Assembly: GCA_013362315.1 (NCBI GenBank)
Contig: JABFWL010000287.1
Coordinates: 1 to 41,026 of the forward strand
Reading direction: 5' to 3'
DNA length: 41,026 nucleotides
DNA from: Catenulispora sp.
Lineage (GTDB): Bacteria; Actinomycetota; Actinomycetes; Streptomycetales; Catenulisporaceae
Shown: one piece after another, positions 34,020-35,816 of the stretch
Layout: each line of letters begins with the position of its first letter
How positions within the stretch are numbered: the stretch's first letter is position 1
The notes under the pieces: generated by a model
What the model saw: the letters and a program-made list of their open reading frames with translations, nothing else
Database searches by the model: none
Told to the model about the DNA's origin: nothing
Program-made: the position numbers and the translations under genes

Positions 34020-35621
34020 CTAGAACGGCCAGGCGACGTCCTGCCCCTCGGCGAGCAGCCCGAACATCGTGAACACCTTGTCCGAGAAGCCGCCGATCTC
34101 GAACCGGTTGGTCTTGTTCGGAGGCAGCGCGCTGCGGCCGTAGCCGGAGGTGTTGATGCCGAACACCGGTACCGAGTCCGGGATGAACGCGTCCGCGCCC
34201 TTCCCCTTGTCGTAGTAGTACGGGAACGTCTGCATGTCGCTGACGATCACCACCCGGTCGTGGCCGCTGTAGGCGGCCTTCACCGACTCCACGATCCGGG
34301 TGCCGTATCCGACCTCGCCGACCCGCTTCGTGAACGCCTCCATCGAGCGCAGCATGCTGCCGCCCTTCGGCGCCTGGTGGCGGAACACGCCGTCGGCGAA
34401 TCCGACCAGATCAACCGAGCCGGAGCCCGCCGAGCCGGAGCCGCCAGTACCGTCGGCTGCAGCCTGCGCACCGCGGAAAGCCAGCGCCACGCCGATCAGC
34501 GCGCCGATGTCCACGTGCCGCACCTGCGAGCGCGCCGACACCGTGGCGCCCATCGACCCGGAGGTGTCGACCAGCACCAGCGTGCGCCCCGGCAGCGCCG
34601 GGATCCCGGCGACCGCGTGGCCCAGCGCGCCCTCCAGCGCGTGGCCCCACCGCAGCGACGGCGCCGCCCGGTAGGCCGACAGCCACCGGTACGGCAGCAT
34701 CCGCGACTTCGCCACCTGGCCGGCGTCCAGGAACCGCGCGCAGATCCGCCACGCCACCTCGTCCGCGACCTCGGCCTCGTCGAAGTTGCGCAGGTTCCGG
34801 GCCAGCGCCATCAGCCCCATCGACGGGATCACGGCCTCCCAGGCCGCGGCGTCCATCGGACCCTGCAGCCAGCCGGCCAGCGCCTCCCACGTCATCCCGG
34901 CCGCGGCCAGCCGCTCCGCGCCGCCGCCGGCGAGCAGCACCGCGCGCCGCTCGGCCACCGGCAGCGCCAGCAGCTCCGCGCGCTTGGTCAGCGTGCCCAG
35001 CGCGGCCGGCACCGGGTTGTCCCGGTTGTGCCGGCGGTCCAGCGCGTGCCGGAACAGGTCGCCCTGCCACGGCTTGTCGGCCGCGGCCACCGGGTGCACC
35101 AGGTCGATGACGTCGGCGAAGCGGAAGCCCTTGGCGTCCGAGTCGTACTTGGCCAGCGAGTACTCCGAGTACAGCCGGGCCACGGCGTCGGCCACTCCGC
35201 GCTTCACCGGCTTCGGCAGCGCGCGGCCGTGGCGCCCGGTCCAGTAGGCCAGCACCTCGCCCGGCTCGTCAGCCCGCTGACACGCGGCCGCGATCAGCTG
35301 CCGGTTCTGGCCGGACAGGCCCACCTGCAGCCGCGCCCAGACCGCCTCGCACGCCGCGACGACCGATGCCGAGCGCATGTTCGCCTCCGAGCGCAGCCAG
35401 GTGACGAACCGCAGCAACCACTGCGGGTCCTCGAGCGCGACGGTGTGGACCAGGTCGCGGTAGCGCTGGTCGCGGACGTCGGCGCTCTCGTAGAACGTGT
35501 CCTCGCCGACCATGTTCGTGACCGCGAGCAGGAACAGGTCCGACTTCGCATCGCGCTTGTAGGCCTTGCCGCCCTCGAAAGTCGTGGTGGAAGAGTTCTG
35601 TGCCTTGTTGAACTTCGCCAT
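34020..35621 (-). CDS. rsr: Ro60 homologue, TROVE domain RNA-binding protein (Rsr)
   Basis: This is a bacterial orthologue of the ring-shaped Ro60 autoantigen, which binds Y RNAs and misfolded RNA ends and, in Deinococcus, joins PNPase for RNA degradation and stress response. The 533-residue protein has the TROVE HEAT-repeat ring (from FEGGKAYKRDAKSDLFLLAV to about 330), then a von Willebrand A-like domain with the MIDAS motif DTSGSMG (about 349-355), VDLVGFADGVF and VVIVSDMQTFPYYY. A Gly/Ser-rich insert of roughly 15 residues lies in the vWA domain. The ATG at 35621 was chosen because a GGTGAT Shine-Dalgarno sequence (35634-35629) stands 7 nt upstream; ATG 35630 and GTG 35633 overlap it. A candidate Y RNA ends 20 nt before this start. 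Confidence 0.93.
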   Translation of the reverse strand: MAKFNKAQNSSTTTFEGGKAYKRDAKSDLFLLAVTNMVGEDTFYESADVRDQRYRDLVHTVALEDPQWLLRFVTWLRSEANMRSASVVAACEAVWARLQVGLSGQNRQLIAAACQRADEPGEVLAYWTGRHGRALPKPVKRGVADAVARLYSEYSLAKYDSDAKGFRFADVIDLVHPVAAADKPWQGDLFRHALDRRHNRDNPVPAALGTLTKRAELLALPVAERRAVLLAGGGAERLAAAGMTWEALAGWLQGPMDAAAWEAVIPSMGLMALARNLRNFDEAEVADEVAWRICARFLDAGQVAKSRMLPYRWLSAYRAAPSLRWGHALEGALGHAVAGIPALPGRTLVLVDTSGSMGATVSARSQVRHVDIGALIGVALAFRGAQAAADGTGGSGSAGSGSVDLVGFADGVFRHQAPKGGSMLRSMEAFTKRVGEVGYGTRIVESVKAAYSGHDRVVIVSDMQTFPYYYDKGKGADAFIPDSVPVFGINTSGYGRSALPPNKTNRFEIGGFSDKVFTMFGLLAEGQDVAWPF

Positions 35622-35641: not shown

Positions 35642-35816
35642 AAAAAGTGCCCTTCCGAGACCGAATCGGCTGCGGTACATGGGTACGTCGGCGCAGGTTG
35701 CCCTACAAAGACGCCTTGGACTTGAACCAAAGACCCTTACCAGAGAAGTAACCGCTGCCTGCGCACCGGAAGGTGTTCACAGAATGCCGTCGGAGCGCTT
35801 CGGACGTCCAGCCGAT
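35642..35816 (-). ncRNA. Candidate Y RNA with tRNA-like module (YrlA-like) upstream of rsr
   Basis: All pairs below are read on the minus strand. A 7-bp stem GCGCAGG (35764-35758) / CCTGCGC (35697-35691) closes a 74-nt module, the size of a tRNA. Inside it is a T-arm copy: CTTTGG-TTCAAGT-CCAAGG (35732-35714), matching GGTTCRANTCC, and a TTAC/GTAA arm with a 7-nt loop (35751-35737) followed by TGGTAA-like D-loop sequence. No normal anticodon arm or CCA end exists, so it is not a tRNA. Outside, two long helices compete: ATCGGCTG (35816-35809)/CAGCCGAT (35672-35665) and CCTTCCG (35773-35767)/CGGAAGG (35657-35651), the latter extended by GTG/CAC and followed by TTTTT (35646-35642). A GTCCGAAG element (35805-35798) resembles the Ro-contact sequence of known Y RNAs. 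The 5' end cannot be fixed; the lower limit is 35780. Confidence 0.65.

What the first reader, a model, noticed from the sequence alone, without database searches (positions are those of the whole stretch)
35642..35816. Candidate tRNA-mimicking Y RNA directly upstream of a Ro60 (rsr) gene
Seen: a 74-nt module on the minus strand closed by a perfect 7-bp stem, with a T-arm of exact tRNA type (GGTTCAAGTCC) but no anticodon arm or CCA, then a T5 run 20 nt before the rsr start. Known: Y RNAs with tRNA-like modules (YrlA class) are encoded near Ro60 genes in many bacteria. Inference: this is the Y RNA partner of this Rsr, unannotated so far in the sequence as given.
Basis: partly seen in the sequence, partly recalled or inferred. 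Interest (0 to 1): 0.85.

Follow-up and report, generated by a model that had tools for sequence, protein, structure and literature searches.

The report
Y RNA gene beside bacterial Ro60
Just upstream of a bacterial Ro60 gene lies what is very probably a small-RNA gene of the known Y RNA kind; its presumed Ro60-binding part is strongly conserved, while its tRNA-mimicking part is cut down here and missing in several sister species, as if it were a swappable module.

Summary
Comparison with rsr leaders of nine same-genus genomes and 29 class-wide loci defines a 129-nt RNA, window 35648-35776 (-): terminal stem CCTTCCG/CGGAAGG, second stem GGC-A-GCGG/CCGC-A-GCC, TACTTC, and an inserted module. 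Covariation is strong (9 of 14 and 25 of 31 pairs change on both sides). A model built without the window finds it at 63.4 bits, E 8.5e-11. In 296 class genomes that model rings in 24, all among the 37 with rsr, in none of the 259 without. The proposed 7-bp closing stem is not conserved (1 of 40, 0 of 21). The T-arm is, with compensatory changes; the module folds as T-arm plus closed acceptor-like arm without a D-arm. Of ten same-genus rsr leaders, six have no module, three the reduced one, one a full permuted-tRNA module; each of the ten genomes also carries a full tRNA-mimic Y RNA elsewhere. Rfam YrlA reaches its cut-off at none of those tested. Verdict: a reduced variant of a known kind (bacterial Y RNA, YrlA-related). 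Expression and Rsr binding untested.

The parts
35648..35776 (-). Y RNA gene, about 129 nt, ends set by the conserved terminal stem
   Evidence: R1 model 63.4 bits, E 8.5e-11; next window hit E 0.13. R2 82.5 bits (the window was in the R2 training set)
35767..35773 (-). stem 1 (presumed Rsr-binding), 5' strand CCTTCCG
   Evidence: pairs with 35651-35657; helix covaries in A1 and A2
35651..35657 (-). stem 1, 3' strand CGGAAGG
35752..35759 (-). stem 2, 5' strand GGCAGCGG, with a mismatched A in the middle
35668..35675 (-). stem 2, 3' strand CCGCAGCC
35745..35750 (-). TACTTC after stem 2; invariant in all 21 rows of A1 and all 40 rows of A2 (TACTTC was part of the pattern that collected the rows, so this invariance is partly built in)
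35733..35736 (-). closing stem of the module, 5' strand GGGT (pairs with ACCC 35681-35684); place of the anticodon stem in full modules
   Evidence: MFE and centroid; same stem predicted in L002, not in L003
35681..35684 (-). closing stem of the module, 3' strand ACCC
35715..35731 (-). T-arm TTTGG-TTCAAGT-CCAAG
   Evidence: aligned with T-arms of 39 other rows: helix 3 has 99.5% of cells paired and 3 of 5 pairs with two-sided changes
35686..35714 (-). acceptor-like arm, closed by a GCAA loop (GCGTC..TGTAGG-GCAA-CCTGCG..GACG)
   Evidence: MFE and centroid; longer stem at the same place in L002; L003 differs
35781..35786 (-). -10-like CATTCT
   Evidence: CATTCT in 8 of 10 and CATCCT in 2 of 10 same-genus rsr leaders, 4 to 6 nt before the stem-1 region; sigma-70 consensus scan finds nothing
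35805..35810 (-). -35-like TGGACG, 18 nt before CATTCT
   Evidence: TGGACG in 5 of 10 leaders, TGGCGn in 3, TAGACG in 2 (read by eye)
35642..35646 (-). T5 run; possible terminator in this species only
   Evidence: present; not conserved in sister leaders
34020..35621 (-). rsr (Ro60 orthologue, TROVE); start taken as ATG 35619-35621, the conserved M(A/V/S/T)KFNK
   Evidence: PF05731, 4.4e-9; two solved TROVE proteins, about 1e-23; start shared by the ten orthologues

Best explanation
The element is the gene of a bacterial Y RNA, partner of the Rsr (Ro60) encoded 26 nt downstream. Shown by comparison: a two-stem core that covaries and goes with rsr, and an inserted module whose T-arm and acceptor-like arm correspond to the minihelix half of a circularly permuted tRNA, without the D-arm. 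Inferred: the transcript starts at about 35776 from the conserved -10-like box; Rsr binds the terminal stem; the module is the effector-binding part, which in the reduced form offers only a T-arm/acceptor minihelix. The RNA would gate the Rsr ring and, through the module, tether or aim a partner such as PNPase or a tRNA enzyme. Full tRNA mimicry would be left to the stand-alone Y RNA encoded elsewhere in the same genome.
For: Conserved element in 10 of 10 same-genus rsr leaders. Covariation: 21 module-less RNAs, 96.9% of cells paired, score 0.340 against a shuffled mean of 0.117; 40 module-bearing RNAs, 94.4%, 0.535 against 0.165; 0 of 500 shuffles reach the score in either set, and slid versions collapse. 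R1, trained without the window (but with six same-genus leaders), finds it at E 8.5e-11. R1 rings in 24 of 296 class genomes: 24 of the 37 with rsr, 0 of the 259 without; in the family in exactly the 10 of 14 with rsr. Of stretches fetched by the core pattern, 43 of 53 viral-contig stretches (52 contigs) and 64 of 80 returned genome loci hold an Rsr match. The same core with a full permuted tRNA occurs in the same genome at C11. [quoted passage not shown] smegmatis (PMC4726728); YrlA is 90-150 nt, a long end stem plus a tRNA-like domain (PMC8394870).
Against: No transcript, Rsr binding or effector was tested. 12 of the 24 genomes in which R1 rings had given rows to R1. 13 of 37 rsr genomes gave no R1 hit under that scan's stricter filters; 6 of 29 class rsr loci show no core by pattern; in the family scan R1 misses the L007 leader, which R2 finds. 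R2 is less specific: at E <= 0.01 it rings in 13 of 14 family genomes, 3 of the 4 without rsr among them, there at 53.8 bits or less. Rfam's YrlA model does not recognise the element. The module of L003, third member of the reduced group, folds differently and its first T-stem pair is a mismatch, so the reduced module may be drifting. The promoter-like boxes are not seen before the C11 copy.
Confidence: 0.88

Rival explanations
1. Cis-acting leader: the Y RNA core sits in the rsr 5' untranslated region and Rsr binds it to control its own synthesis; it need not be a free small RNA.
For: The core ends 21 to 27 nt before the rsr start in the four leaders that carry a module, the window among them; no conserved terminator follows; no sigma-70 consensus promoter was found.
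Against: The same core is encoded away from rsr in the same genus and in tandem arrays; in the six module-less leaders 56 to 129 nt lie between it and rsr. The two ideas can both be true.
Confidence: 0.25
2. Decaying relic: the rsr-linked module is no longer needed because the stand-alone YrlA-type RNA does the work; only the Rsr-binding core is still selected.
For: Six of ten same-genus leaders have no module; each of the ten genomes has a full-module RNA elsewhere; L003's module folds differently.
Against: The T-arm of the window trio keeps most of its pairing through compensatory changes; a D-arm-less layout recurs in separate stand-alone Y RNAs (three copies read: L118, L120, L121).
Confidence: 0.35
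3. Intrinsic terminator or chance hairpin upstream of rsr, unrelated to Y RNAs.
For: T5 run after a hairpin-rich stretch. The consensus scan lists one terminator-like site, but that is the T-arm hairpin at 35714-35732 with its own T-rich tail, not the T5.
Against: Covariation, model hits and rsr co-occurrence; the T5 is not conserved.
Confidence: 0.02
4. A tRNA pseudogene or tRNA-derived insertion.
For: T-arm of tRNA type.
Against: ARAGORN finds no tRNA; in relatives the order T-arm, acceptor arm, D-arm is permuted and lies inside a conserved two-stem core.
Confidence: 0.02

Closest known systems
YrlA (Y RNA-like A; Rfam RF02553), Salmonella and Mycobacterium smegmatis
   Same: rsr partner; long stem made from the 5' and 3' ends; tRNA-like module. 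In full-module relatives of the window RNA T-arm, closed acceptor arm and D-arm follow in permuted order with no free CCA end (that YrlA lacks a free CCA end is recalled, from a 2018 structure paper not held)
   Different: The window RNA lacks the D-arm and is not reported by RF02553; in the family's genomes the best RF02553 match is 50.4 bits against a cut-off of 69
Deinococcus radiodurans Y RNA (tether of Rsr and PNPase)
   Same: Rsr-binding lower stem and a separate effector part; tether and gate (PMC4726728 and PMC7790460, passages)
   Different: Not compared by sequence here
Salmonella rsr-yrlBA-rtcBA operon RNAs
   Same: two Y RNAs beside one rsr, as the short plus long pairs seen before several actinobacterial rsr genes
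   Different: RNAs upstream of rsr here; rtcB neighbourhood not examined; YrlB not compared

Membership tests
bacterial Y RNA (Rsr/Ro60-bound RNA) | terminal stem pairing the RNA's 5' and 3' ends, conserved by covariation | tested here: met
bacterial Y RNA (Rsr/Ro60-bound RNA) | genetic link to rsr | tested here: met
   26 nt upstream of rsr; R1 rings in 24 of 37 rsr genomes and 0 of 259 others
bacterial Y RNA (Rsr/Ro60-bound RNA) | physical binding to Rsr; existence as a small RNA | not testable with these tools
   needs RNA-seq and immunoprecipitation
YrlA (RF02553) | score at or above the Rfam gathering cut-off | tested here: not met
   nothing at the cut-off in the window nor at E up to 10 at the element; 0 of 14 family genomes; 0 of the 20 class rsr loci given, of 29 held
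YrlA (RF02553) | T-arm | tested here: met
   35715-35731
YrlA (RF02553) | closed acceptor-like arm | tested here: inconclusive
   predicted in the window and L002; L003 differs
YrlA (RF02553) | D-arm | tested here: not met
   R2 aligns the acceptor/D region at low posterior, with a 7-position gap in the D-loop and non-standard pairs; in the fold one nt lies between acceptor-like arm and closing stem. Present in the same genome's C11 RNA

The most novel reading that the evidence does not exclude
Actinobacterial Rsr uses one conserved Y RNA handle with exchangeable heads: none, a T-arm/acceptor minihelix, or full permuted mimics that resemble different tRNAs (class I, and Leu-, Asp/Glu- or Gln-like by recalled consensus), with two to five copies before rsr in 18 of 29 class loci. 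Heads are gained and lost within a genus. Rsr would thus be aimed at different partners or sets of damaged tRNAs by a small kit of decoys, and the window RNA would be a minihelix head.
Probability: 0.35. Interest if true: 0.75.

Novelty: new variant of a known kind. Interest (0 to 1): 0.5.

Why it matters
What the tRNA-like head of bacterial Y RNAs does is not settled in what I could read: a 2021 review says it binds PNPase (PMC8394870, passages), while a 2020 study says roles were studied only in Deinococcus and offers possibilities, such as decoying a tRNA nuclease (PMC7790460, passages). A genus in which the rsr-linked RNA exists with a full head, a reduced head and no head, beside a full-head copy elsewhere, is a natural deletion series for that question. 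The models made here also pick up Y RNAs that Rfam's cut-off leaves out in the loci tested.

Tried and rejected
Rfam at gathering level and at E up to 10: nothing at the element; only weak unrelated hits, all below cut-off, in 14 genus loci. RF02553 in own genome: the second hit, C144 (29.5 bits), lacks the core and is a tRNA-like element after a DUF7873-like gene. RF02553 below its cut-off is unspecific: it rings in 13 of 14 family genomes and in 7 of 14 well-known control genomes, and R2 rings in 3 of 4 family genomes without rsr; so for 'full-module copy elsewhere' I counted only R2 hits above 100 bits. Genes beside stand-alone Y RNAs (ORF translations looked at by eye, no family search): ABC sugar transporter and others, no RNA-repair gene recognised. 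Sigma-70 scan: none. Papers: Chen 2014, Wang 2018, Sim and Wolin 2018, Sim 2020 are not held, so what they say of actinobacteria or of module-less Y RNAs was not checked. Searches listed papers that mention Yrl RNAs in M. smegmatis and other mycobacteria (PMC4726728, PMC9569102) but, in the listings and passages seen, none on module-less or arrayed actinobacterial Y RNAs; that does not show it is unpublished.

Rows dropped: 81 pattern hits in 45 of 70 loci; 76 had a 3' stem by the script's rule, 5 did not, L007 among them. A1 = the 17 short RNAs of the script plus 4 added by hand (L012, L013, L043, L044). A2 = 40 of 59 long ones; 19 were left out as near-copies or as lacking a full module (for example L042:1082-1196, L043:3299-3416, three of L046, L066:3482-3595), so A2 leans towards full modules. 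L007 is in neither.

Full report
What is there. On the minus strand, 26 nt before the conserved start codon of an rsr gene (TROVE, PF05731 4.4e-9; two solved TROVE proteins, about 1e-23), lies a conserved RNA element at 35648-35776. The rsr start is best put at ATG 35619-35621, since the ten same-genus orthologues share M(A/V/S/T)KFNK. That is an inference.

Relatives. A search of 14 genomes of the family found rsr in 10, all in the window's genus and the window's own among them. Upstream of all ten orthologous rsr genes stands the same element, roughly CACCTCCCG-GTGCGCAGGCAGCGG-N-TACTTC ... CCGCAGCC..GATCT-CGGGAG. A class-wide search found rsr in 37 of 296 genomes; 29 of these loci were held as L042-L070. 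By pattern, 23 of the 29 have at least one core, 18 have two to five, and 6 have none.

Structure and covariation. Stem 1 joins the two ends; stem 2 has a mismatched position in its middle. In 21 module-less RNAs 96.9% of cells pair, 9 of 14 pairs change on both sides, and the covariation score is 0.340 against a shuffled mean of 0.117. In 40 module-bearing RNAs, with T-arm, acceptor arm and D-arm included, the values are 94.4%, 25 of 31 pairs, and 0.535 against 0.165. In both sets 0 of 500 shuffles reach the score, and sliding the partners by 1 to 3 columns destroys the signal. Related rows inflate such counts, and the rows were picked by a pattern over stem 2's 5' side and, for most, by a pairing stem 1; the stem-1 percentage is therefore partly built in, while the pairs of stem 2, T-arm, acceptor arm and D-arm were not selected for by a pairing rule.

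Independent detection. Model R1, built from the module-less RNAs without the window (six of its 21 rows are same-genus leaders), finds 35648-35776 at 63.4 bits, E 8.5e-11; the next window hit is E 0.13. In 296 class genomes R1 rings at E <= 0.001 in 24. All 24 are among the 37 rsr-positive genomes and none of the 259 others rings; 13 rsr-positive genomes are missed. Twelve of the 24 had contributed rows to R1, so the weight lies on the 0 of 259. In the family R1 rings in exactly the 10 of 14 genomes with rsr, though not at the L007 leader. The core pattern also turned up in 53 stretches of viral contigs (52 contigs) and in 119 stretches of genome contigs (scan stopped at its limit; 80 loci returned). 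An Rsr match lies in 43 of the 53 and 64 of the 80, and a pairing stem 1 in 48 of 53 and 69 of 80. Among the viral stretches, a short copy (about 75 nt) and a long one (about 140 nt) often stand as a pair before rsr. A phage paper seen in passages reports that Y RNAs had been found in mycobacteriophages (PMC12282133).

The window's module. Folded at the conserved ends, the window RNA gives stem 1, stem 2, then a junction with a closing stem GGGU/ACCC, the T-arm, and an acceptor-like arm capped by GCAA (z -2.18, 4 of 200 shuffles as good). L002 folds the same way; L003 does not, and its first T-stem pair is a mismatch. In the three, T-stem pairs change from U-A to C-G. There is no D-arm. A similar layout (T-arm then a closed hairpin, no D-arm) is seen in stand-alone Y RNAs of about 110 nt in three sister genomes that I read (L118, L120, L121). 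Folded whole, L118 and L121 show the T-arm and hairpin and L120 does not; folded as modules alone none of the three shows the T-arm.

A series within one genus. Of the ten orthologous rsr leaders, six (L004, L005, L006, L008, L009, L010) carry the core with no module, three (window, L002, L003) the reduced module, and one (L007) a full permuted module (read by eye; R2 96.3 bits). On the Rsr tree the full-module row is sister to a module-less row (100/99), the six module-less rows need two changes, and the reduced group is one group at 80/76 support. So the module has been gained or lost more than once. Each of the ten genomes has a full-module Y RNA outside this leader (R2 above 100 bits; one such sequence per genome read, all with a D-arm). 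In the window's own genome it is G000:C11:4548-4686 (127.3 bits), and a third copy is at C765:473-613 (93.8 bits). R2 also rings at 53.8 bits or less in three of the four family genomes without rsr; I take those for other tRNA-like elements but did not read them.

The letters are present, but the 7-bp stem GCGCAGG/CCTGCGC is found in 1 of 40 and 0 of 21 rows, with a 6-bp version in L002 as well, and both arms overlap other conserved or predicted helices. The T5 run is not conserved.

Known families. Rfam's YrlA model (cut-off 69 bits) misses the window element and reaches its cut-off in 0 of 14 family genomes and 0 of 20 class loci given of 29 held. By features, the full-module relatives work like YrlA: end stem, T-arm, closed acceptor arm, D-arm. 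The window RNA fails the D-arm test and so is filed as a Y RNA related to YrlA, not as YrlA proper. [quoted passage not shown] smegmatis (PMC4726728), that YrlA is 90-150 nt with an end stem and a tRNA-like domain said to bind PNPase (PMC8394870), that Y RNA tethers Rsr to PNPase in Deinococcus and that the role in Salmonella was not addressed (PMC7790460), and that yrlA was predicted in some mycobacteria (PMC9569102). Four key papers are not held.

How it most likely works. Shown: conserved two-stem core, link to rsr, variable head. Inferred: a promoter at TGGACG-N18-CATTCT (35805-35810, 35781-35786), kept in form across the ten leaders though not a sigma-70 consensus and not seen before the C11 copy, starts the RNA at about 35776; Rsr binds stem 1; the head recruits or mimics. 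Which partner is bound is unknown; PNPase and tRNA enzymes are candidates by analogy only. Self-control of rsr by the leader remains possible beside this.

Noticed in passing
L124 3950-4227 (own genome contig C144) and L125 3500-3850: After a DUF7873 gene (PF25283 shown for L125; the C144 protein looks alike by eye) stand tandem tRNA-like elements in permuted order (T-arm, closed acceptor, D-arm) without the Y RNA core; they ring weakly with the YrlA and R2 models. Perhaps a second class of permuted tRNA-like RNAs.
   Followed up: partly
L031 1646-1826 (-), G010: A Y RNA core carrying an insert of about 105 nt that is not a tRNA mimic by eye and contains CGTCCCTAAGGTAG, which resembles by recall a 23S rRNA motif.
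   Followed up: no
L046 3475-3598 and 3611-3736 (-): Two tandem Y RNA cores whose heads look like long G+C-rich hairpins instead of tRNA mimics.
   Followed up: no
L048 1226-1377, L049 3124-3279, L059 (third copy): Heads with TGTGGCGGAACGG.AGACGCGCC and a longer variable region, like tRNA-Leu by recalled consensus; others look Asp/Glu- or Gln-like.
   Followed up: no
L126-L178: Y RNA core pattern in 53 stretches of viral contigs, 43 with an Rsr match in the same stretch; whether these are phage genes or host DNA around prophages was not settled.
   Followed up: partly
L004, L005, L006, L008, L009, between Y RNA and rsr: A hairpin of the form GGCCG....CGGCC lies between the module-less Y RNA and rsr in these five species and not in the window (by eye).
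   Followed up: no
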